This document shows positions 4,400-56,600 of a stretch of DNA of 64,000 nt, piece by piece. The stretch is taken from positions 496,001-560,000 of the forward strand of contig JAJTUQ010000004.1 in assembly GCA_021399445.1 (NCBI GenBank). The letters are read 5' to 3'. Source of the stretch: Xylogone sp. PMI_703 (taxonomy: Eukaryota; Ascomycota; Leotiomycetes). Under the pieces are notes generated by a model. It saw only the letters and a list, made by a program, of their open reading frames with translations. It was not told the DNA's origin and ran no database searches. Position 1 is the stretch's first letter. Every line of letters starts with the position of its first letter. Made by a program: the position numbers and the translations under genes.

Positions 4400-6268
4400 T
4401 TACAGACCTGTTCTGCAGAGACGTCCATCAGCATCAGCTGCCCAAGCCTCACTACCAACAGCCGTTAAGCCGTAGAAGAAGTCGTCTGGATCATTGGCGG
4501 TTTTGATAGCCCTCAGCCTTTCATAGTTTACTCCATAAAAGACATCTTGCCAATCAGGCTGATGAAAGTTACCTTCATTCATGTAGGCATCCGCGCCTGG
4601 TGTGGCAGCTTCAAGAGTAGGCATGATCACGTTAGTGAGCTCGTCTTGTAGCACTATGGCATTTTCCCACGGCTGACCAAAGGTCCAGAACGCACCAATT
4701 ATGATGCTCAAGAAAGCACCACCCCAGGAAGGCTGAATTGAGTTGCTTGACACAGGAGCAGCAATACGGCCAGACCCCTGGGTATTGACTGCTGTGGTAG
4801 CAAGATAAAACTTTCCACCATCAGTGGCAGCCCGTAGAGCAGCTACAACACCCGATAAATTGTTTGCTAAATTGTCCCGGGACACAAAGCGGCCTCCTTG
4901 CACGGGGCTAAGGAGACTGTGTGCAAAGAATGGTCGTACCGTTGCATTGTACACCTCTGCATAACTGTTGCTACTCGACGTCACGGCTACGTTGAGTAGA
5001 CTGGAACTCACTCCCGCCTGCGCCATCGCTGAGATCAACGGTTGCATCAGTATTTCGAGTTCACTGTCAGTACGACCCGGTGCCATTACGGCTACTACTT
5101 CTAGGAGGTCATACTCGATTATGACGGTGGTCACGACTCCGCTGTCCTCGACCAAGTCCTGCAATTGTGATAGGAAGATTCCAACAGCATTCCAATACTG
5201 ATCAAGGCCGCCAAGTGCAGAAGCGTTAAATCCAAGAGTCGCACCAGCAGTTTGGCTATCAGAGAATAGACGTGTGGTCATAGATACAACTACGCCATAG
5301 GTACCGCCGCCGCCACCACTCAGCGCCCAGTATAGGTCGGTATTCTGAACCGGTGTAGCCACGATGTGCTCTTCCGCGGCTGTCACAACTTCCCACTCCA
5401 GAACATTGTCAGCTCCTAGTCCATAAACTCCCATTAACGGCGAATGGCCACCACCCTGAGTGTATCCACCCGCCACACCGACAGTTGGACAATCACCAAC
5501 CACGACACGGTAACCATTTGCGGCAGCAAAGTCGAGTGCATCGCCTCCCTGAACACCTGCTCCCAATCTGAGCGCCGGCCCACTGTAATAAGACGCCTCA
5601 TACGTTGGAATCAACTCTAGATTCTTGAGGTTATGTGTCCACAATGCGAGAGCGCCAGTTCCAGTGCTTTTTCCATAGAAACTGTTTGAAAATTTGGTGT
5701 TATTATAGTTAGATAATAGAAAGAAGGTTTGCTTACTCATGGCCCGTGTTCTTGATCACCAGACGGATATTGTTCTGCTTCGCAAAGGTGAGACCTTGAA
5801 GAATATCGTCGACTCCAGTAACGTTAATTGAGTAACTAGCGTAGCTACCGAGCTTGCAGGGTGTTGATTCTGGGGTAAACGGAATACAACTTTGATTTTG
5901 CCACCATGGTGACAGAATTTCACCTGGCACGGGGATTCTAATGATTGGCACAATATTCATTAGCCTCAGCATAAACATTAGTATTGCAGTTCGTTTTTAA
6001 GAGCTTACAGGGCAACAGGGTCATCCCATTGCTGCGCAAGGCTAGCACACTCTGCGGACGAAAAGGTCGGATCATGACAGACATGCGCCGCAGGCACCGT
6101 AGCTATCAATCGACCACCCACAGTTGCATTGAGAGCATCCCATGCTGCTGGTGAAGGCCAACCTTCATCGCCGGGTATGTTCTTACAAGTTGGTGACGCT
6201 GAGCCGGAAGCCAACGCTACAAATAATGAGAGGTAGGTAATTGACAGCGACATATCTGTTTGGGACAC
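4400..6268 (-). CDS. secreted FAD-linked oxidase, berberine-bridge-enzyme type
   Basis: Exons 6268-6009, 5964-5737, 5681-4400 on the minus strand give 589 aa. An N-terminal signal peptide (hydrophobic run SITYLSLFVALASGSA) is followed by the FAD_binding_4 (PCMH) fold. NTGHD, formed across the second intron, supplies the histidine at about residue 162. The motif GDCPTVGVAGGYTQGGGHS supplies the cysteine at about 227. These are the two residues that attach FAD bicovalently in berberine-bridge-like enzymes, so double flavinylation is likely. The C-terminal BBE segment is present (NYERLRAIKTANDPDDFF...). The length is normal for fungal secreted members, which oxidise sugars or small molecules or act in secondary metabolism. 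A second in-frame Met five codons downstream could also be the start. It is convergent with the UstYa-like gene. Confidence 0.9.
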
Positions 6269-8459: not shown

Positions 8460-10479
8460 TCAAAAGCTCTTAGCCTGGTGCTTCTGAGCTTTCATCTCGT
8501 CGACCTTGCTGAGCACATTCCCCATTTCCTTGTCCTGCTCATCTTCTGGTGTGAATGGTTGCCCAATCTAAATAGCACAAACGGTCAGCGAATGTAAATA
8601 AGATAGAGGGGTATCTCAAATTGATCAACCATAGAAGTAACTTACTGGAAGCAATTCCTTAAACAGGAATGGGCTCATATGTGGCTGCACTCTGTCTTGT
8701 TCAAGAGCCAGTTCCGGGTATCTGGTCAAGATGTTGATCTCTTGCACAATGCGGATCAAAAACGTGCGAACCATGCTTCGGGCGTCTTCAAGGCCTTGGA
8801 TAGTTGCGGCGTACTCTTTTGTGAGCTTGATCGGCTTCCAGTGAAGCTTCATCTCATTGTCGTTTTTCTTCTCATTCTTGCCTCTTGGCTGTTCTACTTC
8901 CTTTTCTTCCTCAGTATCGTCTTTCTTGCTATCGTCTTTCTCAATCTCTTTTGTCTTACTAACTTCCGACGCACCTGCTCCTTTTTCATTCTCCGAGGTC
9001 TCAGTATTTGGCGTATCAACACCCGGCTTAGAGTTGGTTTCGTCGGTAGTAGGCGTCTTGTCAATAGCTTCTATGGCCTTCTTCCTCCTCTCAGCTTCGA
9101 GCAGCCTCGCTTTCTTCGCCTCTTCAATCTGCTTTCGGTATTCTGATGCACTGAGAAGCTTCATCTTACCAGCCGAGACTTCAAAGCCCAGAACCTGGAG
9201 GTTTCCAGCCACAGTCTTGTAATCGAGGTATGCCTCCTGAAGTATCGAGGCGTAGACGGCGGCGACCTCAAAGGCCGGTAACTTCAAGTTAGCGTAAAGG
9301 TTGTGATAACTGCGTAGAGCCGTGTACTTTGTCAGAATTGCGTGGGTCCGCATGGGTGTCTGCGCCACGAGCTTAGGGAACTGCAGAGCAGCATTCTTCA
9401 TGGTCTCGAAAGTCCAATCCTCATTTGCTGGAAAGATCAGAAGATAAATTAGTCGGTGGGCATAGAGACATGAGAGTTAACGGATAGATAACATACGATG
9501 TTTAAGGTGCTGTCCTCCGCCAGAATACGAGACCGAAATGGTAGTTTCATTCTCCTTTAAGAAACCATCGTTCAAGTTGTTGAGCCCCAGATGGAAGTCA
9601 ATAGCATTCTTTGACTTCCCGTTGGATTTTTCGGACTCTGGAGATTTTGGCTTTGTGAAAAATATATCGGCACTGCATTTTTCATATTGTCAGTCGGGTA
9701 CAACCGGTATCCAGTATACTGGACTCACTTTGCTTTTATCTTTCGCGCCTTATCCTCTGTCTTGGCTTTGACAGAGATGACAGCTGTGAAAGTTCCACCT
9801 TCCTGGAAGCCTGTATGATGAGATTAAAATCAGACGCTCCGTAAATATGCGGTAACGGATGCACAAACCCGAGATAAAGCAGTCGCCATAGATATCAGCA
9901 AATGTTTTACCATCCAAAATACCATCCTCGCTCGTCGCGATGGGTACGATCTCGGTCAGGGAGTGGTCGTATATCACTTGATTAACAACTTTGACGGAGA
10001 ATAGGAACGATATATCCGACTCCTTGACTTTGGAGGTGTTAAGGAAGTCAACCTTTCCAGCTGCATCCCATGCATCATACTTAATGCCAAAGGCCGCATT
10101 GACCTATAATTCAGGAGTGAGAAACGTTCATTTAGGGTACAGATACACGCAGTGCTTACATTCATCGACGAAGTGATGTCAGTAACCTTATCCACCACCG
10201 ATGCCTTGTAGCTGACATCTTGGGCAATCTCGTTCTTCCGCTCTAGCAGCTTCTCATGCTTCCCATCTGTTTCGGGGATTTGCCTGGGCGTCTCGCGAGG
10301 ACCATCGCGCACTGAGATAACAGCATTGTTAATGCACAGCTGCTGAGTGAAAGAATTGAAACCTATAAGAATATTATTTAGATGCAATTACTCTCCATTA
10401 CGCCTATTGGTGCAAGAGGAAGAGACATACCAGTTCCCAGCTGCATAGCTGAGTTATAGGGGGCTAAGAGAGTCGCCAT
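8460..10479 (-). CDS. MACPF/CDC-like protein, paralog B (seven exons)
   Basis: Exons 10479-10431, 10362-10160, 10103-9869, 9810-9729, 9672-9497, 9427-8646, 8567-8460 give 544 aa. The start is set by homology to two neighbours: all begin with a short leader and PY-x2-AM-x-LG-x-GFNS, with an intron inside the last Gly codon. In-frame sequence further upstream lacks an ATG. The segment YGDCFISGFQEGG (from about residue 156, split by intron 3) fits the MACPF/CDC signature Y-G-x-x-F-x6-G-G. A highly charged Lys/Glu-rich linker follows at about 360-447, then a conserved helical tail. There is no signal peptide, so the product is cytosolic or released unconventionally. MACPF/CDC proteins assemble into membrane pores in immunity, attack or development; activity here is inferred from the signature only. 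It is transcribed in the same direction as gene A, 0.44 kb downstream of it. Confidence 0.7.
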
Positions 10480-10921
10480 GGCTGAGGAGGTTGAATTGGG
10501 TGGGATGTGTTTCTTTGCTGTGTTGGACTCGGGAAGAAGAGCAGTGTTCAAAGTGGCTAAAATGCCTCCAGGCAATATATTATACTGTGGCCGTCCGTAG
10601 AATGAAGCAAGAGTCTGTGATGGCGCCTGGGCGAGAGAATACTTAGCTCTACATTTCAATCAGATGAGTTGACCCCTTGCATTAACCATCCATGAAATGG
10701 AAGTCTAGACCATCCCAATTGGACTGTAGCTACCTGATTATTTCAATTATTTAAATTCCAACCCCATTCAATAGTGCAAAAGACTAACTAGTCTACGCTT
10801 CACAAAAAGCGTCCCAGCAGAGGCGCATCCGCATTACTCGCGTGGTCTAAGCTAGATACTGCATTATCATACTCGAATATTCCCAACACAGCCATCAATA
10901 GGTAAAAATGCGATGTCTCAA
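10480..10921. other. spacer between two minus-strand MACPF-like genes
   Basis: Contains the promoter of paralog B and the 3' UTR of paralog A. The frame of paralog B's first exon stays open to about 10659 but has no ATG there, so this part is taken as 5' UTR. Confidence 0.4.
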
Positions 10922-11999
10922 TTATTCCTTAGGCGCTACAGTAGCGCTAACATATTCCCGCAGCTCCGACCAGGGCAGCATGAGGAGTTCGAGAACCAAG
11001 CCTGAGCTGCACAGCTCGCCACATTGCGCCCAGGGTAGCTCGGCCCCGCTGGAGATCAAATTCAGCTGCCGCAGCCTGGCGCCGGCCCGCTCTTGCAGCT
11101 GTGCCCCGAGCTTCTTGTTCTGGGCCGAGGCTTCAAGCGCCTGTTGGTAGTGGCTGATATTGAGCGCCACGTGTTTGCCATCCAGGGAATCGTACGCTGT
11201 CAAGTTGCCCATGCTGGCTTCGGCGTGCTCCTGACTACTCTTGTAATGATTCCCACTCGCCTTGATGAATCCGATATGTCCTTCATAGTCCACATTTAGT
11301 TTCTTGGACGAAAACACGGATGCTTCCGTGCCAGCAATCATATTAACGTTAGTTCCACCTAGGATGTAGGCCCCGACGAAGTAATCGCCGAACTTAGCAC
11401 GGAACTGGTTTGCTGGGTCTCTGGAAGTTCGCAGGAGGCGAAGTGCTTCGTCCGAGAGGCGCGGGAGATACGATAGCGAAACCTGGCCGCATCGATATTC
11501 TACGCGTGAGCTAGATTGAATGGTCTGCCCCGAATCAGTTGTGTACTTCTGGTTTAGGGGGGTTGTGGATGCTGAGCGTCTGGCTGAAAGGCTGAATAGG
11601 GAAATATTATCTTACCCCCGCATTCTCGGCAGCGTTCTTGTCGTACTGTCCCCGGGCGGATGCACCCAGCAGCTTGCCACCAATTTGGCCCGAAATATCG
11701 GCGTGTAGTTGATACTGTGACGCACTGGATGCAGCAGCCGTCTCCTCGGTCTCTCCGCCGCTGGATTCTCGAGTGAAGAGCAGAGGAGTGGACGATAGAC
11801 TTTGTAGGTCAAAGGCCATTTCTCCCTCGCCTCCAAACCTTGCCTTGGACTCCTTAGCCTTATCCGGCGGGGCGAAAAACGAGGTACCTATCTTCATGGG
11901 GGCGTTCATCCAGGGGATAGCCAGAGGGACTCCGGTTGAGATTGCATAGCGTAGCGACGTTGCAAGCGGGCTGTCTGGGAAAACATCTTCTAATGACAT
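10922..11999 (-). CDS. divergent MACPF/CDC-like protein, paralog A (two exons)
   Basis: Exons 11999-11616 and 11524-10922 give 328 aa. An alternative upstream GTG is ignored. The N-terminal half has no signal peptide. The second exon contains FGDYFVGAYILGG (11392-11354, about residue 173), which fits the same [YF]-G-x-x-F-x6-G-G pattern as the neighbouring genes. The C-terminal third is a charged helical region (QEHAEASMGN..., ASAQNKKLGAQLQERAGARLRQLN). It lacks the PY-x2-AM-x-LG-x-GFNS leader and the lectin-like tails of the others, so it is either an old paralog or a reduced form. It is divergently transcribed from paralog C over about 0.57 kb, which would allow shared regulation. The intron acceptor was chosen because it alone keeps the frame; the call otherwise rests on the signature and on context. 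Confidence 0.6.
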
Positions 12000-12569
12000 T
12001 GTCACGGATCGACCACTCGGATTTCGCAGGTCCTGAATTTGCTGAGTCGGAGCTGTTTTAGCCCTTGCCGTGCATTCTTTCTTATGCCTGAGCCCCAGCG
12101 AGATTAGCTCAGTAAATAGTGAGGGTTACAGTAGCTGGAGACACTAGCTAGGTGTGATCAATTACTCCCGCCTTTGCATCGGTACCAGCTGAGCGGTACG
12201 CCACAACCAAACTAGTGGGTGCACTATCGAAGCCACAACCGCGCTTGTGTAGGGCTCTAGAGCAAATAGAGTGCAGGACGGCGAGTGGCTTCGATACAGT
12301 CCATATTAGGAAAGGGATTGACTATGTTCTGGACCCTTTTCTAAAAAATATATCCCTGTATGAGCCGGAACCTGAGCCAATTGGCGAAGAGAGAGGACTT
12401 GCATGCAAAAGTCGATCGAGAGATCAAGCTTAATATCCTGAAGCAAGATCTCGTGTGACTACACTAGGTTGCTCTAGCGTCACGGGAATTGAACTTTCCG
12501 TAAGATATCTTCAAACTCGTCTCATCCAACATTAGCTCAGGCATCCGTAGGTGTTTGTGAAAATATACC
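12000..12569. promoter_or_regulatory. divergent promoter region between MACPF-like paralogs A and C
   Basis: About 570 bp separate two head-to-head starts (11999 on the minus strand, 12570 on the plus strand). No coding frame is supported here. It is the natural place for shared control of the array. I see no motif I can name. Confidence 0.45.
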
Positions 12570-15500
12570 ATGGCGTATAGAATTGCTCCCTACAATCCGG
12601 CCATGAGGCTCGGTATGGGGTAAGTAGCCTATTACGATGTTATTCGTGTTTCCTGTCAATGGAGAAAGAGCAACACATTGCTAACGTAGACATGAACTAT
12701 CTAGCTTCAACAGCTACACGCAACAGCTCTGCTGTAATGACATAGTTAGGTAACGCAGCTCTCAGGTTGAACCAAAATAATCTACTAACCCTTTGATAGG
12801 ACGGCAGAGGGAAAAACAGTCACTGATGCTGATATCAAAATTGCTTCTCCTGAGTTACCCCAAGGCGGCTCAAGTGGCCCTCGGCACGGAATTCTTGAGA
12901 CTCAGAAAGGCAGCAAAATCATCCGTAATGTAGTAAGTACGGGCGCTGATGGCCAGAATGAAGTCAGCCAAGTGGTCGCTTGGCATGCCAGCTTCATCGA
13001 TACAGCTTCGGACGCAACTAAGAAGCTCAACGTCAGCGGTTTGTCTTATCTTCTCGGCTGGAATCAAACTAGTTGCACTAATATGGTAGCTCATAGGTGC
13101 TTTATCAGTCGCTTTGGATGGTCTCGGTAGCATCAGCGTCTCAGGGCATTACCTAGATACCAATACTTTAAAAGAGTCTGACGCCACGTATAACATTACT
13201 GTCAGTGTAGACAACCAGAGACTTGTAGTGCCTGAGATGACAGAGTTCTACCCAATAGATCATATCGGGCCAAGTCGCTTCACTGAGATCTACGGAGACT
13301 GTTTCATCTCTGGGTTTGTCGAAGGTGGCTTGTTCAATGCAAATATCCATCTCAAAAAAAAGAAGGAAGCGAAGGAGAAAGATATAGGTGGTGCAGGCTC
13401 AGCCTCCCTCAATGTAGGAGGGCTTGATGTGAAGGGTGAAATCAAGGGTGGAATGACCGATAACTCATTAAAAGAGAACTTTGAAACCACCATCAGGTAC
13501 GCTTCTCTCTGTTCGCAGCTGCAGTCAAGAATTCTCGCTAATTGAGGGTATCACCCACAGCGTAACTTGGTCAGGAGGAGGGGACATCAAGCCTAATGAC
13601 GTGGATGAATGGGATATCAAGAATCTACTGAGAGTCGCAATGGAGTTCCCGGATCGTGTAGCCGCCTGTGAGTTCACTCACCTTTCTATCATAGCCCTCG
13701 GAATTTCGCATTGAGAGGCTCGGGAATGCTAACATACCATATCACAAAGGCCCCCAGAAAACATAGTGAGCAACAGATACCTGCATCTTGTTACTGATTT
13801 GACTCTTGAGACTTACTTCATAATCACCCCAGTGCTATTCTTACCAAGTATACTTCTTTGAGAAGCTATTATCAGCACAGTTTGAAAGGATCGCCCCTTG
13901 ACTATGAGAACGCCGGGATCTATACGAACTCGCTCCTGGATGCTTATACGGTTAGTGATATATATAATATCTGGAAAAAAAGGGATTTCAAACTAACATA
14001 GCATAGGATTACAAATTCATTTGGTCGCAAATCCAAGAAAGTACGTTATTGAAACGCAGTGTCGTAACTGATACTAATGTGTGTTGCCAGGGATTGCGGC
14101 TCTCGACAAGAATTTAATCACCATCTACAAACTGGAGCTGCATCCAAGCTTGGAAACGTACAGGAAAACATTCATTGATACCTATACAGAACGTAAAGGG
14201 CTATACGACAAGGCCGTAGCCCTTCAAAAAGCAGACCCGCAACGATACGGAGGCGTGACACTTGAGGCACCACTACCCCCCAACGCTCTTGTAGCATATA
14301 CGCCCGATCTGTTTGGTTTAGACCAGGCCAAGCGAGACTGCAGACTCGAGATGATAAAGATTGTTCGAGAGGTAGCTGAGATGAAGATTTTCAGTACCAT
14401 AGGCGTATTTGCTAACGATCTGGCTCTAATCTCCAGGTTTCTGAAGTCACGCGAGACCCCCAAGTGGCCGCAGATCCCACACGTGTTGGCAGATACGTCG
14501 CTCCAAGTATCTTTCGCCGACTAGTACCAGCAGAAAAGCCGATTGACCCTACAATGGCTGAAAGGGAAGCCAATGCAATGAGGAAGGGGCTTGTGGGAAC
14601 AGTCCATGTACGTAAATCTTCAAATAGCTTGAAGCACCTCATCTAATAGTTCATTCCAGGGCACAGCACAGGACCTGCAGAATCCTCGACTTTACCAGAC
14701 TGGTGATCCAATGGTTGAACTCGAAAAGCGAGTGAACATGAAATATGGACACAAATCTGCAAATTGGCGTATTGGACAGATCAACGGAAGAAGTAAACAT
14801 CCTGTAAAAGAACAGTCTTTCAACGATCTGGATGTTCTCGATAAAACCTACGTTGTATCTCGCATCACCGTATGGTACGACGATACCCGCATTGTTGGTG
14901 TGCAACTTAAATATCAAAATGGCCAAGTCATTCCTCACGGCAGTACTGATGGCTCTAACCAGTCGGTCTCTTACGACTTCCAGTTTCAAGAAAAGGTCTG
15001 TTTCATAGGTCTTGAGAGTCACACAGATACAACCAGAAATATCTGGGTCGACACCATGCACATGGGTTCCACTCTCAATATTTGGGTTGTGGAGCCCCCA
15101 AAGAGGTTTAAGGATAACAAGAAATTTGAAATCAAGGCTCCGAGACCATCTGGCAATGATTCTTGGGACTTGAAAGGATTTTACGGCTCTTTCGATCCGA
15201 AAGAAAAAGGGTTCACTCAACTTGGTCCTATATGGGGTAAGGAAGCGGTCGATGAGCCGACGCCAGCGGCATGTTCACTCTTTGACGCAGTTACATGGCC
15301 GACCGTCCAAGATTGGCCTTTATCCATTGTGGACTCGATGAAATTCCATCACCATCGCGGCGACAACTTCCGCATATCTCCTTTGCACGGCTTGTTAGCC
15401 AATTCGATCGGTACCCCATTCAACGCCCTTGACTCGATTGATACAGACTGGATATTCAAGAAGGCCAGCTTCTTCTTCATCGAATTCAGCGGATCCGTCA

Positions 15501-16081
15501 TACTTTCTGGAGTATCCGTGGATTATATGAATGGGAAGCAGCTACAATACGGCAAGTGCAACCCTTCAGCAAAATCAATCATAAGTTGGGAACCAGGTTT
15601 GAATAAACGGGAAGTTGTAGTTGGCATTGCAACGAGTATCCAGAAGAAGGAAGGTGGTCCTCAGTATTGTCTCGGGTTGAGGTTACGTCTTGAGATGCAA
15701 GCACAAAAACCGATGCCGTTGCCCAAGGAAGAGAGCCAAGAGAAGCTTAAGGAAGAAAAACAGGAGGAAGAGAAGGAGAAGAAGGACGAGCAGAAGGACG
15801 AGAAGAAAGTGGAAGAGGAGAACGAAGAGAACAAAACAGAGAAGAAGAGTGAAGAGGAGCAAAAGAAGACAGAAGAAAAAAGCCCACCTCCACCACCAGT
15901 GGTGTCAGACCTTTGGATAACAGGCGATGCTTCAATACAACATGGCGGAGAGCCGTGGCAGACGATCAGTGCAGCTCCCTCGCCAAAGCCTGGAGAAAAA
16001 TGGGCAATCAAAGGCTTCGCAGGCCAGGCAGGGTCTGATGGAATCGAAGCGCTCATGGTTGTCTGGGGTAAACAAGTGTAG
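12570..16081 (+). CDS. MACPF/CDC-like protein fused to lectin-like repeats, paralog C (ten exons)
   Basis: Exons 12570-12619, 12705-12749, 12800-13038, 13097-13496, 13561-13667, 13811-13950, 14007-14040, 14091-14371, 14437-14607, 14660-16081 join in frame to 962 aa. The leader PYNPAMRLGMGFNSYTQQLC matches paralog B. YGDCFISGFVEGG (13291-13329, residues 177-189) is the MACPF/CDC-type signature. From about residue 550 there are two similar beta-rich modules, each with a strand pattern like IVGVQLKYQNGQ / LSGVSVDYMNGK. A Lys/Glu-rich linker (about 842-898) and a last short piece follow. The pieces ending 'W.lKGFyG...WGK' and 'WAIKGFAGQ...WGK' are internal repeats. The modules resemble jacalin-related (beta-prism) lectins, suggesting glycan targeting of a pore-former. 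There is no signal peptide. Exon 6's 5' border is the least certain. Confidence 0.72.
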
Positions 16082-16911
16082 TGTAGGCCTATAGCATCCT
16101 AGTATTTTCTAATATTTCTTTGAGCTATCTTTTTTTTGGTTTTCACGACCCTCAAAGCAAATCTTATTTGTAGTAATAGGGTTGAAGTATCATATGCGGC
16201 CATTGAAACAAGTATTAAACCGATCATCTTGGACCTTTTTCGTATACCATCACGGAGCACAAGAAGATTAGCAAATTGTGATGTTTTTAGTCCAAAAGTT
16301 CTTGGAGCTGATTAAGTAATTCCAAAAGAGATGAGAGATACAGATACAGTACAAACGAAGGTCCATTGCCTAATCAGACCGTCGGTAGTAAAGATTGTCT
16401 CGGTACCTGCCAATTCACGCGTACTACCTTTCCAACGAGATATATGCGGCATAGTGGCGGCGGGAAGGTGGCAGCACGTGGCTGTGGCCCGCTGCAGCAT
16501 GCGGGGTGCCACCGGCAGTGTCCGGAGAGTCTAGAACAAGATCTTCTCCAGGTTTCAGCCCGCCACCACGGAACCATAACTGCGGTGCCTACAAACTATT
16601 GTTTGTGGCTCCAATATTAGTATTCCAAGGGAGGCTGGATCAGGTCAAATAGTGGAATCTGAAAGAGACATCGTATCAGCCACAAGGGCGATTCCTAGTG
16701 CGCAACTATAGACTTTCCCGTGCGAGCCAGGCTCCGGTCCATACATGTGTGCTCTCATAGATGATTACCGTATGGAAGTTGATCGCGAGACAGATGTGCT
16801 CTTCTCACATCGCCCCTAACAGATTGTTTTCTGAGCCCTCTGTACTCATCACGATCAAGTCCCCAGTTCTATCATTATTACCGAAGAAATATCGTTAGCT
16901 CTCAGGTGAGA
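16082..16911. other. spacer between MACPF-like paralogs C and D
   Basis: About 0.8 kb between two tandem plus-strand genes, holding the terminator of C and the promoter of D. Short frames at 16331-16620 overlap each other on both strands and have no recognisable content. Confidence 0.4.
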
Positions 16912-19351
16912 ATGGAGAACGCAGCTGGAGTGATAGTACCTTATACTGATGCTATGCATCTTGGCCGAGGGTGAGCGATTTGTCAACTGTGCAGTCGCTG
17001 CTGCACGGGCTGTGCTAATCTTGACCCCAGGTTCAACTCGTACAGTGAGTTAGAGCGTTCTATATCCATCTCGCTCATTCACAACGTGGGGGTAATCGAC
17101 TAATGCCCTTCCGAAGCACTCGAACCGTGCTTGGATGACTGTGTCCGAGGTTCACAGACTCACAGTGACGGTGTAAGTGATAAAGAGAATAAGTATGCCT
17201 AATTAGTTCGGTACTCAGCACTAACAGAGACTCAGAACACCGTGAACTACAGGATTATAATTGCTGATAAGCTCAGCGATGTTGCAAGTGCGCTCAATAT
17301 CCCATTCTATCCGTCCATTAAGAGAGAATCCATCTCATTCAATGATGCTGTCTCCGCGATAGATGAAGAAGAATTTTATTCGGCCGACGTTAACTTCATC
17401 GTAATTATCAATGTCGAAACACGAAGGCTTTCCATCACCGTAGAGGAAGGGGGGCTACGATTGAGAGATGGTGTCCAGCTTGGAAATCTTCTTTTCAATG
17501 AGATATATGGCGACTCCTACGTTTCTCAATATATTGCAGGTGGGACAGCAGCTGCCGTACTATCTATAAGTGTTCTCGATAGAACCAGGGCGGAAGAAAC
17601 CATCAAGACAATCAAGGAGTCGCTAAAACTCAATGACCACGAGGCATCCGCCAAGCTGATGCTAGATGCTTACGGTAAGGACAAATCGAATGCTTTTGCT
17701 ACTGCGTTGAAGGGAACCAAAACACATGCTTGTGTTTCATGTATCGGTAATGGCAACCTCATAAATGGTGAGTATTCCTATTGCAACTTACTATTTATAT
17801 TCCCATTTATTGACTGCAAATTAAGATGATAGCATAGATAAAGTACTTGCAAGCGTCTTAGATTTCCCCAACACGGTCAGCACCAAGTCAGCGTGGACTT
17901 GGGCTAAGTTGACCAGGTATCATATGGATTCATCTCTTATTAGTTCCCTAGGATCAAGTGAGTACGCAACTCTGAAATACGACCAAATAGAAGGCTTCTC
18001 GGCAGAGCTGCTCGATAAGTTCATGGGTTTCAAAGCGCTTCTCAGGGATCTGAAAGCCATAATTGCTGACCGCGACAACTTCGAGCCGTGTAAAAATGAC
18101 AATAATCCGATAGAAGTCTCCCTCGAAGTGCTTCTCAGTACCCAAAGGAAGCTACGTCAGGATATGTTGAAAATTATACAAGCAATAGGGATTCTTAGCC
18201 AAGATCCCTGGAGTCACAAGCGTCAAATGGCCAGGAAGCAATGTCAAGGTCCTCAGCCAGCTAACGACCTTGCGGTAGTGGCTAGGCCAGCTGCTGCGGG
18301 GCCAAACGCGACTGATCTAAGTGATGAGCCTTCCGCGGACCTCACAGTCGGCGGGGGTGCTGAACAATTGACTTTTGACTTCGGCAGCTTGTTATCTCCA
18401 GATGTTTGGAAGCGCTCTATGCCTATCCGCAAGTCAACAGTTGCACCCGATGCTAATAGCACTGCCAGAGTCTCTCAAAGCTCTGAAGCGATGGCTCGGG
18501 GACATAGGCAACGGATGGATGCCGCGCTCGTTACACACAACAACGTGGTTCAGAAGATGGAGGGTGACTCCAAGAGAATGCTTTCTGAGAAGGAGATCGA
18601 GTATACCAATAAGATGAACAACCTCGATCAATCGCTTACCAACACGAAGAGCGACTTAAAAAATGTGAAGTTACAACTTGCTGAGGCTGAAAAGAAAATA
18701 AAGTTCTTTGAGGGACCAAACAACCTTGACCCGGCATACCATGGAATGAAGGTCCTGATTTGCCTTCGCGTGAGTCCTTATACGGCATTGGACTTTGCTG
18801 GCAGTTCGTATATTCTTTTGTGGTGGAAACCTAGCCCCCCTTTCTAACAAAGCGTATAGTACCTCATGGCTGGAGCCTTGGTTTCGATAATCCAAATCAA
18901 CACTGCTACCTCGAGAAAGTTCGCCCAGGGGAACAGAATTCGCCATGGCTGATTCACTGGAACGACAAGTACATGGAGCTTGGAAACCCGGACAATGGTA
19001 CTCCCATCGAATATGCACAGCGTCGATACGATGGCGGAGCACATTGGCAAGAGTGGATGATTGGGCGCACCAATGAACAAGAATATTCTCTCAGGTAAGT
19101 ACCGCAGTTTAATGTGAGATACGTCGGCGAATTGAGATGTTGCATGCTAAATATTCCCTATAGAATCTATCACCCCAGCTGGAATGTGTATCTTGATATG
19201 GCAGAACCCCGTGAAAATAAATCACCGTAAGGTTGACCAAATCGTATTTTCATTTGCATTTCCAACTAACCGGTGTAATAGTAAGGATCTAAGAGGCTGG
19301 AGTAAGGGCCCAAATAGTGTACGTCAGCTCTTTCAAATTCATGTTTTGTAG
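16912..19351 (+). CDS. MACPF/CDC-like protein with coiled coil, paralog D (eight exons)
   Basis: Proposed exons 16912-16970, 17031-17044, 17117-17172, 17236-17767, 17838-18769, 18853-19094, 19164-19226, 19282-19351 give 655 aa. The leader ends in PYTDAMHLGRGFNSY, as in paralogs B and C, with an intron in the same Gly codon. YGDSYVSQYIAGG (17506-17544, from residue 134) fits the MACPF/CDC signature, with the usual Phe replaced by Tyr. A predicted coiled coil lies at about 465-515 (EKEIEYTNKMNNLDQSLTN...). A distinct C-terminal domain follows, containing PHGWSLGFDNPNQHCYLEKV and ending in WQEWMIGRT; it is not the lectin module of paralog C. The 14-nt exon 2, the acceptor at 18852 and the 3' end are the weakest points: the last exon could instead splice at 19318 and stop at 19378. 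Confidence 0.62.
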
Positions 19352-33700: not shown

Positions 33701-34506
33701 CTACACAATACTCATCTTTTCCCGTATTTCTACTTTTAAAATAAGGCGTTCCAAATAAGAATGCAGAATCGTTATATCTTGAAGTACCTAGGTATACTTA
33801 CGTGATAAGTAATAATAAGTAATCAGTGTCATCGACCATTAGCTAGCGCACTTAGCTTTTGAAGCCGTGCCGTTTTTTTTACACTAGTAAACGGTTTCTG
33901 AGCCACTTACTTAATTATATTTTAAACGGCATTAAGCACGTTACCTTAGACATATTATTAGTATAATTCAGAGACTTCAGATATAACAATATTTGAATTT
34001 ATTTCATTGGTCATATGGCAAGCGTTGATGAATTCGCTACGCTAATGGAATGGCTAGGCCGTGAGAACTAAAGCGCTTAGATATCCAGCACCTCTTGGGA
34101 TAGTAACAAGATGACTTTGCTTTGCTAAAATATGAGACACATTCTATCTAGATCGGTCGGACCGGTTACACTACAGAGTAGAATAAGATCAACACTGGAA
34201 ACACGACTAAAGTAACGGCATGCTGTAGTACCTATTAGCCTGTCGACCGTATATTGTGCCTGGTCTAATGCATCTCCTTCCTAGTATGGAAGCGCTCGCG
34301 GAATTTACAGTAACACACCTCTAGTGCTTATTATATATAAATCTGCAATCTGGAGACCATAAAACGTGCTTAATCTACCTAGATCTTCGGGTTTGCTTAG
34401 GGTTTACATCTGCTTGTTTCCTTATTACTGTACCCCTTCCCAACATCCATCTAGTAGCCTGTCCATTACGAACCCATTACATTGCAATCCTTTTCGAACC
34501 CTAGCC
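33700..34506. promoter_or_regulatory. upstream region of the AflR-like regulator gene
   Basis: AT-rich DNA returns here after the GC-richer island. A TATATATAAA string at about 34332-34341 lies roughly 165 bp before the ATG. A GC-rich block with overlapping CGG half-sites (GATCGGTCGGACCGG, from 34151) could bind a Zn2Cys6 protein, but this is speculative. Confidence 0.35.
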
Positions 34507-35871
34507 ATGCCTTCATCCTCTGCCAGCTCCGGCGCTGGCAATACCACTGCTCCTGCAGCACCCAAACTGCGTGACAGTTGCGAGGCCTGCGCAGCCTCCA
34601 AGGTGAGGTGTAATAAAGTTAAACCGTCATGTTTCCGTTGCACAAAGCGTGGACTGAACTGCGAGTATCTGGCTACCAAGCGGGTGGGACGCAAGCATTA
34701 CAGTCGACCCAGCATTAGCGACGGAAGTAATACTCCTTCTACTAGTACCGCAAATACAATTAATGTGACCCAGTCGCCTCCAATGAGCGACTGGTTTATC
34801 TCTAATTCAGCTGATGGTTTGCCGTCGCCAAGCGTTACCGATTCTTCTTCTCTCAAGCAGACATCTGGAGCTTCCTCGGATATCTTCTCAAATGCCTTCT
34901 CCCCGGTGGGCCAGTCCTTGACCTCTGTTATCACCGACCTGACCAGCGAACTGGACGACTTTTTTACACTCACCACCGAGCTTGATGACTTCCTCGCCGC
35001 GCCATTGGCCCTATCCGTGCCAGACACGTCTGACAGCGACATCCTAAACCAGGTACGGTTTTTCTCATCTGCAGGTGCATCTGCAGACAGCGGCAGCAGC
35101 AACTGCACGACCACGTTTCTCGACGCATTCCCTGGTTTTGAAGACACCGTTTCTGAGCTGTCCTCACTCTCCAGGCCCCGCTCTCCCCTGAACCGCAGCT
35201 CCTCCACTAGCGACTCATGTAGGTGCCTCTTCCAGGCCCTCGATCTCATGAAGCAGCTTTTTCCGGATTCAAGCGCCTGCAGCATATCTACGCCCCAGGG
35301 AGCTGACAAGCCCGCAACCCTACCAACGATCCAGGACGTTATAGCTAAGAACGAAGCTACCATCATAGCCGTGGGCACCATGCTGCAGTGCTCGTGTTCC
35401 CAGGACGGCTACCTGCTTGCCATCATCTCCCTCATCGTATTCAAGGTTCTGGGCTGGTACGCTGCAGCGGCACGCAAAACGCCTTCTTCCGACTCCAGCA
35501 GCGGTTCGCGGAGTCCCAGCGTCTCCAGCATGCGCCAGTCACTACATTCGGAACAGGTACTACAGAACCCGGCCATTGTCGGCAGTTACTGCCTCGACGG
35601 CGAGGATGGAGCGCGCATGGCAGCCCAGCTAGTCCTCAGCGAGCTACACTGTGTCCGGCGCTTAGTCAACCAGCTCTCATCGAAGCTCAAGGTGCAGGCG
35701 GTTAGGAAGGGGGGAGGGGCAGATACTCCGAATAGCTCGGGCTATGTGGGTGCGGACAGCGAGACTGCATTGCCGCTTTCGGCGGTGATGTTGAGTCAGC
35801 TAGAAGTTGATTTAAGAAAGCGGCTCAGGACACTGTCGTCGGAGATTGTGGAGTTGTTGAGGAGAGAGTGA
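34507..35871 (+). CDS. AflR-like Zn2Cys6 transcription factor
   Basis: A single exon of 454 aa from the ATG at 34507. The frame is open upstream to 34366 but contains no earlier ATG. The Zn2Cys6 cluster has cysteines at residues 25, 28, 35, 42, 45 and 52 (spacing C-x2-C-x6-C-x6-C-x2-C-x6-C). It is framed by the AflR-type sequence LRDSCEACAASKVRC and followed by the basic KRVGRK linker. The middle is Ser/Thr-rich. The C-terminal half carries the AflR-type regulatory domain (CSCSQDGYLLAIISLIVFKVLGWY, then NPAIVGSYCLDGEDGARM). Family members bind TCG(N5)CGA-like sites and activate aromatic-polyketide clusters (aflatoxin, sterigmatocystin, and MdpE in monodictyphenone). It is the leftmost gene of the metabolite cluster and pairs with the AflS-like gene at 43.2-44.7 kb. 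Confidence 0.92.
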   Translation: MPSSSASSGAGNTTAPAAPKLRDSCEACAASKVRCNKVKPSCFRCTKRGLNCEYLATKRVGRKHYSRPSISDGSNTPSTSTANTINVTQSPPMSDWFISNSADGLPSPSVTDSSSLKQTSGASSDIFSNAFSPVGQSLTSVITDLTSELDDFFTLTTELDDFLAAPLALSVPDTSDSDILNQVRFFSSAGASADSGSSNCTTTFLDAFPGFEDTVSELSSLSRPRSPLNRSSSTSDSCRCLFQALDLMKQLFPDSSACSISTPQGADKPATLPTIQDVIAKNEATIIAVGTMLQCSCSQDGYLLAIISLIVFKVLGWYAAAARKTPSSDSSSGSRSPSVSSMRQSLHSEQVLQNPAIVGSYCLDGEDGARMAAQLVLSELHCVRRLVNQLSSKLKVQAVRKGGGADTPNSSGYVGADSETALPLSAVMLSQLEVDLRKRLRTLSSEIVELLRRE

Positions 35872-49835: not shown

Positions 49836-52162
49836 ATGGACAAGCGATCTACTCTCTTGCTACTTGGTGGGCTCTTGCTTGCTAAGGCAGGCGTCATTCC
49901 TCGTTTTGCTACCGTAGTTTCAGAGCGAGACGTGAATGAGAGCACATATGACTTCATCATCGCTGGCGCTGGTCCTTCTGGACTCACTCTTGCCGATAGG
50001 TTGACTGAAGACGCCAATGGTATGTTAGATTTGGCTCCATCGAACTTGGGAAACAAATACTGAAGATAATCTAGTTAAGGTTCTGGTCATTGAAGCGGGT
50101 CCATTGGATAAGGGAGAAAATTTTATTTACGTACCTGGATTCAGAAACCCAAGCCCATATTTCTGGCCGAACCTGAACACTCAACCGCAAACTGAGCTCA
50201 ACAATCAGGTTATTCCACTTTACTGCGGAAAGGTCGTAGGTGGTGGTAGCACTGTTAACTCAATGGTTTTCCTCAGGTATGCGAATTTGCAAACCTTTAC
50301 TGCTTTTCTATAGAACTCTTGACAAAAGCTTATGAATATAGAGCTACATCTGGTGATTTTGATGCTTGGGAATCACTAGGAAACAGGGGCTGGGGATGGA
50401 ATGAGATGCTTCAGTATTATAAAAAGGCAAGTCCGTTTTTTATAAAAATGGTACACTCTTGGCTAACATGTAGCCTGCACATATAGAGCGAAAACTTCAC
50501 CTTGCCAAATCCAGAATTGGTTACAACCACAAATATTACGTGGGATGCTTCAGTCCGTGGGTTTAGTGGACCCGTTCAATACACTTATCCAAATTATGTC
50601 TACCCTGCAAGTGGTACGTATTCCTCAGCACTCTAATGAAGAATGCTGCAATTATTCCCTTACAATGTCTCATTTTCTAATAACTGAGGCACTATGCATC
50701 TACGAAGTGCTTTATACATTTGAAAGAAATTAGCTCACTCTTCCCATAGCCAATTGGATGGCCGCTATTGAATCTGTCGGCGTCCCATACAGAGAGGATC
50801 CCAGTGGAGGATCGAATCCAGGAGTCTTCGCCTTGCCATTCTCCATGGATGCAACAAACCAGACTTGGACAAGAAGCGATGCCCGACGAAATCACTACGA
50901 CAGGGTAGACACCCGGCCCAACTACCATCTGCTAACAGAAACCACTGTCGCAAAGATCACGTTTAAGAACAATCGAGCAACCGGCGTTGAGTATCTTCCA
51001 ACTGCTGGTGGAAATTTATCAACTGTGCGCGCTTCAAAAGAAGTCATCGTATCTGCAGGGGCTTTACATACACCCCAGATCCTGATGCTTTCCGGGATTG
51101 GGCCGAGGAAAGTGCTTGAATCTCTTCAGATCCCAGTAATTTCGGACCTTCCAGGAGTTGGACAAAACTTGCAAGACCAGTATACGTTGAACGTGCCATA
51201 TACTTGTAAGTCCTCTTCAACTCGCCAGCACTACATCGAAGCTCCTGTATATGCTAACTAACCATTCACAGGGAGCAACCCAGTCTTCCCCAACTCTACC
51301 TCCCTCTCCACCAACGCTACCTATAATGCCACACAGTATGAGCTGTACCTTGCTAAGAAGCCAAGCGCTTATACTATCTCATCGAATCTTCCTACGAACT
51401 TCGGCTTTGTGACATTGAAACAACTTGCCAATTCTACATACCAATCTATCATTGCTCAAGCCAAGGCTGCTAATCCTGCTGCTCACCTTCCATCCGATAT
51501 TGATCCAACCGTCCTTGCAGGCTACAAGGCACAACGAGAATTGATGATCCAGCAGCTGCAAAATCCAAATATGGCCTCCGGTTCCCTGAATTGGAATACA
51601 GATAAGACAGCACAGGTTTTCCATCTCAAACCACTCAGCCGTGGTAATCTAACTATCAACTCGACCAACCCACTAGCAAACCCAGTTTATGACTTGCGCT
51701 CTGCTACAGACCCAATTGATTTCAAAATACTCACTGCTGGATTGCGCATGCTACGGACATTAATGTCCACTCCCGCAATGGCAGAGCTCGGCCCAACGGA
51801 GGTAGCTCCATATGGAGCGCAGTTCCAAACTGATGACGAAATTCTTTCAGTTTTGCGAGCCCAGACAGGACCAAGTGCTGCACATCAGTGCTGTACAGCT
51901 GCTATGCTTCCGCGGGAACTTGGTGGCGTAGTCGACTACGAGAGGAAGGTGTATGGGGTCCAGGGTTTGCGAGTGTCAGATATTAGCAACATGCCAATGG
52001 TGCTTGCTGGACCACCCACAGCCACCCAGTACGCTACTGGCGAAAAGGTGAGTTCTCCATTTGAGTTTTCTAGAAGTTATAGTCATTTTATGGTTATTAA
52101 TATCTCATTAGGTTGCGGATATGATCAAGCATGAGTATTGCCTCGACGGATATTGCAACTAA
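49836..52162 (+). CDS. secreted GMC-family FAD oxidoreductase
   Basis: Exons 49836-50019, 50075-50276, 50342-50426, 50487-50613, 50750-51205, 51272-52047, 52112-52162 give 626 aa. A signal peptide (MDKRSTLLLLGGLLLAKAG) leads to the dinucleotide-binding IIAGAGPSGLTLADRL (about 41-56), whose first Gly-x-Gly set is intact. The GMC signatures CGKVVGGGSTVNSM and SAGALHTPQILMLSGIG follow. The active-site region has the His at about 556 (AHQCCTAAMLPREL). The second catalytic position lies in GPPTATQYA, where most GMC enzymes have His or Asn, so the proton-handling residue may differ. Intron 3 is of the GC-AG type (GCAAGT at 50427). Relatives include secreted oxidases of secondary metabolism and of sugar or alcohol oxidation. 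It is divergent from the dehydratase gene. Confidence 0.9.
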
Positions 52163-53693
52163 GGTTTGACAATAGCTCTTAACATCTAAACCCAGTAATT
52201 GGGTTACTTCAATTTTGGGGCGCCCTCGTTCCTTTTCCTTATGTCAACATTGAAACTTCGTCACCTAAAATAGAAATTTTTATACCTTTTTGACGGGGGC
52301 TGTGATCGAACAAGTCATACTTTATATGTTGTGCATCATCTTCTTAGATAAAATTTAATTGCGTACAAAACCCTTGCTTACAATCAAACGTATTATTCTA
52401 GAATTGACAGTAACATAAGAGAAAAAGTATATGATAAATCTAGCTTTACTTCAGTCTTTTGGTATAATTTCACTCCAACAAATGGTCTAAATGATGCGTC
52501 TTGTATAGGAGTTGTATAGGAGCTCGTTGTACATTTGTAGTCACCTCATGTTGCCGGCTCTAAGTGCTGGGAGCAAGTGTATAATACAAAATTCTGAGGG
52601 ATTTGTATGTTCGATTTAGTTTATTTGTGGATTGGAACATCTGTATTGTAGTTTGCAATATGTATGACGCACACTCTTCTTCCTTGGTACCCTGCTTGCA
52701 GCTGAGCTAGGGAGACGCTTGTCATTTACATATTAAGTGCAACAGGGTTGGATGAAATAATGATGAAGATATGTTGCATATGCAGCATGCATGTACTACC
52801 CGTCAAAAAGGAGCTTATAATAGGTTGTAGACATATCAGCCGCCATATATATCTAGGCAGTGTTCTACTATTAAACGCTCCGTTCAACCTAATGCAAGGA
52901 TAATCCGAGTAGTCATAATATATCTATATCTCTCTCTCCATCTTAGCATTGTATCTATATACGCGTAATTTATGGGACTGGATGGGATTATAAAGTTCGC
53001 CTATCAGGAGTTACAGATTTGCTGTTACTGGCACATGAGTGCAAGGCAATAGATACAAACCTATCTGCACTGCCTGTTCAGCTAGCTCTTCTCAGGTTTC
53101 TTGACTAAAACACTGTGCTCCCCCGGAATCCCCCTTAAGCATAGGATTATGGTAGCCAAATGAGAGGACGCGGACCACTCGGATCTTCACATCTGCCGAT
53201 ATTTGAACTCAGCCAATAATCCAGGCTCCTTTCAAGTACTAGGTGAGTTACGATGGATGCCCGCTTGGGAATAATAATCTCCGGAATGGTAAACCGAGGA
53301 ATTAAGAATTGGTGTGGGAGTCGGGGTTACATTGGTCTGGAAAACGGGGATCGTATTTTCGGGCATCCACGTTGATAACGGCCTTCGGTGATGGTCTAGT
53401 ATAGTGTGTCCCAGTTGCGGCTTACCGGCTATCGAAGTTTGTTTAGTATTTTCTGATTTTTGTTGTGTGCTTACACAGTCATTTGGTATTGTCATTGCCT
53501 GGCTCTTATCGCATTCTTTCTTGTTTACACTCTCTGATGTTCCTTCGTAGGCTCCTGTATTTTCTCACACTCTCGGGACTCGAACTACAAAGTCAATTGC
53601 CTGCACAACCCTAACTTCCCTACAACGTAACGCCAGCTACAGCGTAGTTGAAATATTGGTAATTGGGCCAATCGAGTTGCAACAGGAAGTTTG
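52163..53693. other. 1.5 kb intergenic region with the ABC-transporter promoter
   Basis: No supported gene. It contains the canonical AflR-type site at 53573. The remaining AT-rich DNA is featureless. Confidence 0.4.
53573..53583 (+). promoter_or_regulatory. canonical AflR-type site TCG(N5)CGA
   Basis: TCGGGACTCGA, 111 bp before the ABC-transporter ATG. It is an exact match to the AflR consensus TCG(N5)CGA and shares ten bases with the site at 49676-49686. It supports co-regulation of the transporter with the cluster. Confidence 0.5.
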
Positions 53694-56600
53694 ATGGAGC
53701 CAAAAGATACTGAGACGCTGGAGGGGGCCCTGGCTAAGGAGCGCGAGTCCTCTCCAGCCGCTCCGCAGCCACGATCATCAATCTCATCGGGAACCACTGC
53801 TATTGACATAGAGCAACACAAGGAAGAATTACGTCCTTATTGTCGCAATGGTTTAGCTAGAATACACAGTAGTGTATCTGTGGAGCAGGCGGAAGCCGAC
53901 TTTGAGGAGTTGCAGAGGGAAATTTCGGGCTTGAGCCATGAAAGTGAGAGAGATGGCCGGCTAAAGGTGACAGATATTGAAAAGGGGACGGCGCTGTCGG
54001 GAGGTTCCTCAAGTTTTGAGGATGAGCCATTTGATCTGGAGACATACTTGCGTGCTAGCCACATTGCTGAAGAGGAAGCGGGAATCAGGCCCAAGCACCT
54101 CGGTGCGTACTGGAATGGTCTGACGGTGAAGGGGACGGGAAGCAGCACGAACTATGTCAAGACATTTCCGGATGCAATAGTCAACTTCTTCGATTATGTT
54201 ACTCCGCTTCTTAGACTGTTAGGTATTCGCAAGAAAGGGAGCGAGGTGACTTTGTTGGACTCATTTAGGGGAGTCTGCAACCCTGGTGAGATGGTCCTGG
54301 TGCTAGGCAAGCCAGGGTCGGGATGCACAACATTTTTGAAATCCATTACGAATCAGCGATATGGATTTACAGACATTCAGGGAGAAGTTTTATATGGCTC
54401 TTTTGCTGCTGAAGAATTCAAGCGGTATCGGGGAGAGGCTGTGTATAACCAAGAGGATGATGTACATTATGCGACGCTCACAGTCGCGCAGACACTGGGG
54501 TTCGCACTCGATACCAAAACCGCTGGAAAGCTTCCCGGAAGGATGAGTAAATCAGAGTTCAAGGAGAAAGCCCTTGCAATGCTTCTGAAGATGTTTAACA
54601 TCGAACACACTCGCGATACCGTCGTGGGTGGACCGCTAGTTCGCGGCATCTCAGGAGGTGAAAGGAAGCGTGTTAGTGTGGCAGAGATGCTGTGCACAAA
54701 TGCTAGTATCCTGGCGTGGGACAACAGCACCAGGGGTCTAGATTCATCAACGGCACTGGACTTTGTAAAGTCGTTGAGAGTGTATGCGAATCTGTATAAG
54801 ACAACCACATTCGTTTCATTGTATCAGGCATCGGAGAATATGTATAGGCTTTTCGACCGGGTTTTAGTCATTGATGCAAAGAAGCAAGTCTATTTTGGTC
54901 CGGTGAGTGAGGCTCGAAGTTACTTCGAGTCCCTGGGGTTTGACCCGCGGCCTAGAGAAACTACACCCGACTACCTTACTGGATGTACGGATGAGTTTGT
55001 GCGCGAATATGCTCCCGGCTACTCAGCGGCGAATGCGCCTCACAGTCCAGGGACACTAGAAAAGGCTTTCCTGGATTCGAAGTATTCCAAGATGCTGGAT
55101 GAGGAGATGACTATTTATAAAAGCAAGCTTGCCGGAGAGCAAGAAAAACACAAGAACTTCTTGTTGGCGGTTAAGGAGAGCAAACAGAGAGGTGCAGGAC
55201 GATCCGTTTATACTGTCCCATTCTATCGACAAGTCTGGGCTTTGATGAAGAGGCAGTTTACCCTCAAGCTTCAAGATAAGACGACGCGCTTGCTTTCCTG
55301 GATGAGAACTGTCATTATCGCCATTGTCCTCTCTACTTTGTATCTCAACTTGCCTGAGACTACTGGGAGCGCATTTGGGAAGGGAGGCTTGCTCTTCATC
55401 TCCCTACTATTCAATGCTATTGCAGCTTTATCGGAATTGCCCGCCGCCATGCATGGGCGTGGTATTGTGGCCAAGCACAAATCTTTTGCTTTCCATAGAC
55501 CATCTGCATTGTGGATTGGCCAAATTTTAGTAGACCAGGTCTTTGCTGTAGCAGAGATTATGGCATTCTCCCTAATAGTGTACTTTACGACTCATCTATA
55601 TCGTAGCCCGGCCGCCTTCTTCACTTTTTTCCTCATGCTTTTCAGTGGGAACATGGCTATGACGTTGTTCTATAGGACCATTGCATGCATAAGTCCGGAC
55701 TTCGACTATGCTGCTAAGTTTGCAGTGGTCTTGACTACACTGTTTACTACTACGTCAGGATATCTGATCCAGTACCAATCTGAGCAAGTATGGCTGAGAT
55801 GGATATACTACGTCAATATACTCGGCTTAGCCTTCAGCTCACTGATGGAAAACGAATTCAGTAGGATTGAAATGACATGCACTCAAGAAACATTGATTCC
55901 ATATGGACCTAACTATACGGATATCAACCACCAAGTTTGCACGCTGCCAGGATCGACCCCTGGCACTGATATTGTAAATGGATCAGCTTACATTGAGAAA
56001 GCCTTCTCATATGCGCCTAACCAATTGTGGAGGAATTGGGGAATTATAATGAGTATCATCATATTTTTCCTCATTATGAACGTCGTCCTTGGAGAGTTTA
56101 TCAGATACGGCATGGCAGGTAACACGGCGAGAGTGTATCAAAAGCCGAATGCGGAACGAAAAATATTAAACCAAAAACTCTCGGAGAAGAGAGAGAAACG
56201 CCAGAAATCCAAGAAAGATAGCGACAGCTCAGACTTGAAGATAAACTCAACGAGTATTCTGACTTGGGAAGGGTTAAACTATGATATTCCGGTTCCAGGT
56301 GGAACTAGGCGGCTTCTGAGAAATGTGTATGGTTATGTCAAGCCTGGGGAGCTAACTGCACTGATGGGCCCATCTGGCGCTGGGAAGACAACATTACTGG
56401 ATGTGCTTGCAGCACGAAAGAATATTGGCGTTATCACTGGGGATATTTTGGTCGATGGAATGAAACCTACAAAACACTTTCAGAGGAGTACCTCATACGC
56501 TGAGCAGATGGATCTTCATGACCCAACACAATCCGTTAGAGAGGCGTTGCGATTTTCTGCGGATCTGAGACAGCCATATGAGACGCCACAAGAAGAGAAG

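What the first reader, a model, noticed from the sequence alone, without database searches (positions are those of the whole stretch)
8460..19351. Array of four paralogous MACPF/CDC-like genes
Seen: four adjacent multi-exon genes each have one copy of [YF]-G-x-x-[FY]-x6-G-G (11392-11354, 9890 to about 9796 across an intron, 13291-13329, 17506-17544). Known: Y-G-T-H-[FY]-x6-G-G is the signature of the MACPF/CDC pore-forming superfamily. Inference: this is a locally expanded family with different accessory domains, arranged as two minus-strand genes and two plus-strand genes around one divergent promoter. The pattern suggests a multi-component or diversifying pore-forming system used against competitors, hosts or predators.
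Basis: partly seen in the sequence, partly recalled or inferred. Interest (0 to 1): 0.88.

Follow-up and report, generated by a model that had tools for sequence, protein, structure and literature searches.

The report
Fungal cluster of perforin-like pore proteins
A filamentous fungus carries four neighbouring genes for proteins built like the membrane-piercing perforins of our immune system, and two of the four also stand side by side in several other fungi, which suggests that they work together as one two-part pore weapon.

Summary
Four intact, intron-rich genes (A, B on minus; C, D on plus) each carry one [YF]Gxx[FY]x6GG signature. B equals a deposited protein of Xylogone sp. PMI_703 letter for letter. 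B, C and D are paralogues and relatives of Aeg-L, an Alternaria pore protein with a solved 36-chain structure (B-family profile E 2.9e-23). A looks like a bare MACPF core: all 50 listed PDB fold matches are MACPF/CDC, and A and B profiles find each other around the signature.

A recent local expansion is not supported: B and C each group with their own Fusarium relatives, A is more distant, and only D looks like a lone fast-evolving copy. New here: of 14 named genomes with a detected A, A lies beside B in 10 and on the same-length contig in one (no data for 3); three deposited proteins are A+B fusions; a second A-like/B-like pair lies elsewhere in this genome; and no aegerolysin, the usual partner of this MACPF group, lies beside them. 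Best reading: a two-part A+B pore plus a lectin-tailed pore former, C. Pore formation and A-B assembly are inferred, not shown.

The parts
10922..11999 (-). Gene A: bare MACPF-like protein, 336 aa in my model (11999-11616, 11548-10922), 328 aa as deposited; signature FGDYFVGAYILGG at 11392-11354
8460..10479 (-). Gene B: Aeg-L-family MACPF-like protein, 544 aa, 7 exons, charged linker and helical tail; signature YGDCFISGFQEGG split by intron 3
   Evidence: (100% identical to deposited P0001)
12570..16081 (+). Gene C: Aeg-L-family MACPF-like protein with jacalin-like tail (residues about 540-680, perhaps a second repeat ending at 957), 960 aa, 11 exons; signature YGDCFISGFVEGG at 13291-13329
16912..19351 (+). 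Gene D: fast-evolving Aeg-L-family MACPF-like protein, tail probably coiled (Pfam Leu_zip below cut-off), 668 aa as deposited (P0133); signature YGDSYVSQYIAGG at 17506-17544
12000..12569 (.). 570-bp spacer between the divergent start codons of A and C (candidate shared promoter)

Best explanation
The locus encodes a set of fungal MACPF pore proteins of the Aeg-L kind. A and B are two parts of one system: A, a stand-alone MACPF core, and B, an Aeg-L relative, are made together and join in one hetero-oligomeric ring that inserts beta-hairpins into a target membrane; A takes the place that an aegerolysin has beside other ascomycete MACPF-like genes. C is a related pore former that carries its own jacalin-like sugar-binding tail and so chooses its target by glycan. 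D is a diverging copy of uncertain activity. Without strongly hydrophobic N-termini the proteins are probably held in the cytosol and released on damage or feeding, or leave by another route. Shown here: gene models, homology, fold class, A-B neighbourhood. Inferred: pore formation, A-B assembly, sugar targeting, storage, target.
Confidence: 0.5

Rival explanations
1. All four are MACPF pore proteins, but each acts alone as a homo-oligomer, or with a partner coded elsewhere such as the aegerolysin on C22. The cluster only keeps them under shared regulation.
For: The Aeg-L structure has 36 chains of one sequence, so this family can form rings of one kind of chain; an aegerolysin exists in the genome; a review says that a shared locus indicates coordinated expression, not necessarily joint action (PMC9505663, section 32 read); 101 of 115 B-search hits have no A in evidence.
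Against: Where an A was found it lies beside a B in 10 of 14 named genomes and on a same-length contig in one (3 without data), and an A-like gene lies by the B-like gene of a second locus here. A has no domain beyond the core, so no targeting part of its own.
Confidence: 0.3
2. The proteins have the MACPF fold but act inside the fungus (development, spores, cell death on fusion) and do not attack others.
For: No strongly hydrophobic N-terminus in a simple check; some fungal MACPF proteins are reported intracellular (PMC9505663, section 32).
Against: Lectin tails recur in relatives: jacalin, H-type, ricin-B, and a fucose-lectin-like stretch just below cut-off in the second locus, which fits foreign glycans; Aeg-L acts on animal epithelium (passages of PMC13341504 and PMC13253223).
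Confidence: 0.15
3. A chance motif in unrelated proteins; no MACPF fold.
For: Pfam MACPF is not above its cut-off for any of the four; A shows weak sub-threshold matches to another family, PF07996.
Against: Random expectation 0.08 per window; signature kept in 110 of 115 B-search and 13 of 17 A-search hits; Aeg-L homology; fold matches.
Confidence: 0.03
4. A recent local expansion by tandem duplication.
For: Four related genes side by side; the database search with D returned only D itself.
Against: B and C group with different Fusarium clades; B-C identity 30-35% against C with Fusarium P0099 46%, B with Fusarium P0003 57%, A with Fusarium P0118 53%.
Confidence: 0.04

Closest known systems
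Aeg-L of Alternaria alternata (PDB 9uj0), named with Aeg-S
   Same: Sequence homologue of B and D, and of a close relative of C, over the MACPF core; solved 36-chain pore
   Different: Works with Aeg-S (passages; that Aeg-S is an aegerolysin is recalled); here no aegerolysin lies beside the genes, but a second MACPF-like gene does
Beauveriolysin A/B, nigerolysin A2/B1 (aegerolysin + MACPF-like pairs)
   Same: Gene pair with a MACPF-like protein; BlyB is not recognised by Pfam but was modelled on MACPF templates (PMC8624791 passages) and has the signature (PMC9505663 section 32)
   Different: The partner there is an aegerolysin in 5'-5' orientation; here it is MACPF-like and on the same strand. 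BlyB and NigB1 were not compared by sequence here
Pleurotolysin A/B (PlyA/PlyB)
   Same: Two-part fungal MACPF pore; the OlyA/PlyB pore heads the Z list of A (7.6, tied with rows within 1)
   Different: PlyB is in PF01823 and PlyA is an aegerolysin; 13-fold pore of 26 PlyA and 13 PlyB (PMC8624791 passages)
Complement C8/C9 and stonustoxin (complexes of different MACPF-type chains)
   Same: More than one MACPF-type chain in one system (recalled); both appear among fold matches
   Different: Animal proteins with other accessory domains; no direct sequence relation shown

Membership tests
MACPF/CDC superfamily | 13-residue signature Y/F-G-X2-F/Y-X6-G-G | tested here: met
   All four, one copy each
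MACPF/CDC superfamily | MACPF core fold (bent central sheet, two hairpin regions) | tested here: met
   A and B models rank MACPF/CDC structures first, with weak scores and low-confidence models; C and D not folded, linked by homology to B
MACPF/CDC superfamily | Pfam PF01823 over its cut-off | tested here: not met
   A exon 16.6 bits, full A 14.3, cut-off 21.5; none for B, C, D. BlyB also gets no Pfam domain, so this is a limit of the model for that group and not a defining feature of the superfamily
MACPF/CDC superfamily | Forms oligomeric membrane pores | not testable with these tools
   Needs protein
Aeg-L family (ascomycete MACPF-like) | Sequence homology over the MACPF core | tested here: met
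   B 2.5e-9, D 4.6e-4, C relative P0099 0.001, B-family profile 2.9e-23. For A: no PDB match at E<=1, so A is not filed here
Aegerolysin/MACPF bicomponent pair | Aegerolysin gene beside the MACPF gene | tested here: not met
   The only aegerolysin match at E<=1 is on C22 (exon-wise search)
Jacalin-like lectin (tail of C) | Pfam PF01419 over its cut-off | tested here: inconclusive
   22.4 bits for the exon, 19.6 for the whole protein, 20.5 for a cut piece, cut-off 22; relatives P0089 34.1, P0092 46.2, P0099 and P0111 none; a profile from five relatives finds C 540-680 at domain E 2.5e-9

The most novel reading that the evidence does not exclude
Filamentous fungi have a conserved membrane-attack system made of two or three different MACPF chains: a bare MACPF core (A) that replaces the aegerolysin as obligate partner of an Aeg-L-type chain (B), with lectin-tailed chains (C and relatives) as interchangeable aiming parts, often in the gene order B-A-C.
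Probability: 0.4. Interest if true: 0.75.

Novelty: new variant of a known kind. Interest (0 to 1): 0.52.

Why it matters
The fungal two-part MACPF toxins described in the papers seen here use an aegerolysin to find the membrane. A widespread pair of two MACPF genes would be a fungal parallel to hetero-oligomeric complement pores, a ready test of how MACPF chains divide the work of binding and inserting, and a lead on how fungi deal with nematodes, insects or rivals. It would also give a meaning to families (A above all) whose members mostly carry the name hypothetical protein.

Tried and rejected
Pfam on single exons, full models and both alignments gave no MACPF assignment above cut-off; not used as a membership test because BlyB also fails it. 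A had weak matches to PF07996 (T4SS; 14 bits against 24.7; 2 of 17 A proteins, best E 0.0011); set aside as below cut-off. Profile-profile comparison of A and B gave only 30 columns at the signature (probability 23.5, E 8.6e-4), so A-B homology rests on the signature region (up to about 84 columns) and on folds. PDB sequence search with the A profile found nothing at E<=1. Aeg-L (9uj0) is in the lists for A but not in the 50 rows shown for B by either program, although it is B's sequence homologue; that shows how rough the B model is. The amphipathicity test was mixed. In the tree 110 rows were used; hits without the signature or with short cores were left out, P0001 was replaced by my identical B model, and the fused model P0006 came out as a misplaced long branch that set the midpoint root. 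D stood beside Penicillium P0113 on a branch of 4 changes per column, so that place is not trusted; P0113 was not in D's own database answer, although the pair aligns at E 6e-30, so the database searches miss relatives, and the B and D searches scored only the 7997 and 7995 candidates sharing most words. The PF15294 match of D's tail is below cut-off.

Paper searches for fungal MACPF families or pairs: 5 of 5 listed; 20 of 23; 20 of 46; 20 of 36; 9 of 9; 4 of 4; 2 of 2. I saw listings with the start of abstracts, passages of PMC13341504, PMC13253223, PMC8624791 and PMC9505663, and the whole of section 32 of PMC9505663. In what I saw nothing describes an A-B pair; I claim absence no further. 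sought papers on Xylogone only; its listing was not followed.

Full report
What is there. The window is a stretch of contig C20 of a 50.1-Mb genome. Gene B equals protein P0001 of Xylogone sp. PMI_703 letter for letter; the genus is a leotiomycete. Splicing by hand with GT..AG introns of 48-85 bases gives four open genes: B (-, 8460-10479, 544 aa), A (-, 10922-11999, 336 aa), C (+, 12570-16081, 960 aa) and D (+, 16912 to 19230 in my model, to 19351 in the deposited one). Deposited A and D use other splice sites and agree at 98 and 97%. A and C diverge from a 570-bp spacer; B follows A on the same strand after 442 bp; D follows C after 830 bp.

The signature. Three contiguous matches in six frames against 0.08 expected, the fourth across an intron in B. 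It is kept in 110 of 115 B-search hits and 13 of 17 A-search hits; the four A-family misses read GA in place of the last GG. None of these 132 has the strict [YW]G[TS]H[FY]x6GG form. An A-like gene elsewhere in the genome has YGTHFVSGFLLGN, which is canonical but for the last residue.

Family. B, C and D are paralogues: B-C E 7e-52, B-D 5e-18, C-D 5e-16. The profile of 53 B-family proteins finds PDB 9uj0 (Aeg-L, 36 chains) at 2.9e-23. [quoted passage not shown] A is not found by that route, but its profile hits 30 of 112 B-family proteins at E<=1e-3 (three fused A+B models dropped first), with none in 20 shuffled sets or the reversed set; the B profile hits 5 of 17 A proteins, with none in 20 shuffled sets. 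In an ORF scan of the window and six loci of the same genome, the A-profile hits up to E 1 were A, the A-like gene, the B-like gene beside it, D and C, and nothing else.

Not a local expansion. In a tree of 110 cores B sits with Fusarium B genes (100/99) and C with Fusarium P0099 and P0111 (100/100). The rows that I labelled C-type, H-type-lectin and ricin-B are each one side of a branch against the other labelled rows. D hangs on a very long branch (4.0), and its database search returned only itself.

The A-B pair. Of 17 A-search hits, 14 come from named organisms. Here A lies beside B in the DNA; in nine more the locus tags of A and B are consecutive (F. albosuccineum 6137/6136, F. mexicanum 10400/10399, F. 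mundagurra 14315/14316, F. proliferatum 04798/04797, F. longipes 4514/4515, F. musae 013781/013782, Conoideocrella 008521/008522, Aureobasidium g1610/g1609, Xylaria curta g1682/g1683); in F. equiseti both are on a contig of the same length; for Scytalidium sp. 3C, F. napiforme and Nemania serpens there is no information. Three B-search hits carry an A part in front (P0006, P0016, P0043), probably gene models that run two close same-strand genes together. Seen from the B side, an A is in evidence for 14 of 115 hits; the A search reached close relatives only, so the rest is open. In this genome a second A-like gene (+) lies tail to tail with a B-like gene (-) at C19:6669097-6672892. That stretch was fetched because of its B-like gene, so the find is not unbiased; single-protein searches of the genome with A and with the A-like ORF each found only the query's own locus, that is, they miss each other and would miss other distant copies.

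B-x-C order. Of seven C-type proteins outside this genome, five share a contig (by length) with a B-type protein, and in three of these the tags leave one place between, if Cosmosporella tags run in tens: F. nematophilum 010752/010754, Cosmosporella 080370/080390, O. brochopaga 004079/004077. Here the order is B-A-C, so an A-like gene is the prediction for the gap; it was not read.

Aiming parts. C has a jacalin-like domain at about 540-680: borderline in Pfam (22.4, 19.6 and 20.5 bits for three cuts, cut-off 22), clear with a profile from five relatives (domain E 2.5e-9), and a weak second repeat ending at 957 (0.002). Among relatives P0089 and P0092 have Pfam jacalin, P0083 H-type and P0074 ricin-B lectin domains, while P0099 and P0111, the closest to C, have no Pfam match. 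The second locus has a fucose-lectin-like stretch, 24.5 bits against a cut-off of 25.3. A has no such part.

Partner. Ascomycete MACPF-like proteins are known as neighbours of aegerolysins (PMC8624791 passages; PMC9505663 section 32). The only aegerolysin match in this genome is on C22, with no A- or B-profile hit in the 9.9 kb around it. Hence the proposal that A stands in for the aegerolysin. This step is inference.

Level of certainty. MACPF class for B, C, D: high; for A: good. Pore formation: likely by kinship. A with B in one pore: about even. Target: unknown.

Noticed in passing
G000:C19:6669097-6672892 (L015:1598-5393): Second A-like (+) and B-like (-) pair, tail to tail; the A-like protein has YGTHFVSGFLLGN, the B-like one is followed by a fucose-lectin-like stretch just below the Pfam cut-off.
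   Followed up: partly
G000:C24:409628-411376 and G000:C23:1419591-1421339: Two near-identical (98% over 4,485 bases) single-ORF genes of 583 aa: distant B-family-like N-terminus (E 4e-6) without the 13-residue signature plus a jacalin domain above cut-off.
   Followed up: partly
G000:C19:8013569-8013971 (L001, L002, L016): The only PF01823 match of the genome over the family's cut-off (24.3 bits).
   Followed up: no
G000:C22:2982815-2983138 (L013): The only aegerolysin match of the genome (102 bits), without an A- or B-profile hit in the 9.9 kb read around it.
   Followed up: partly
window 34363-64000: AflR-type Zn2Cys6 regulator (34363-35871), P450 (40925-41602), GMC oxidoreductase pieces (51262-52134, 62759-64000) and a PDR-type ABC transporter (53652-57518): may be a secondary-metabolite region.
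   Followed up: no
window 4400-5755 (-): Berberine-bridge-type FAD oxidase exon beside the cluster.
   Followed up: no
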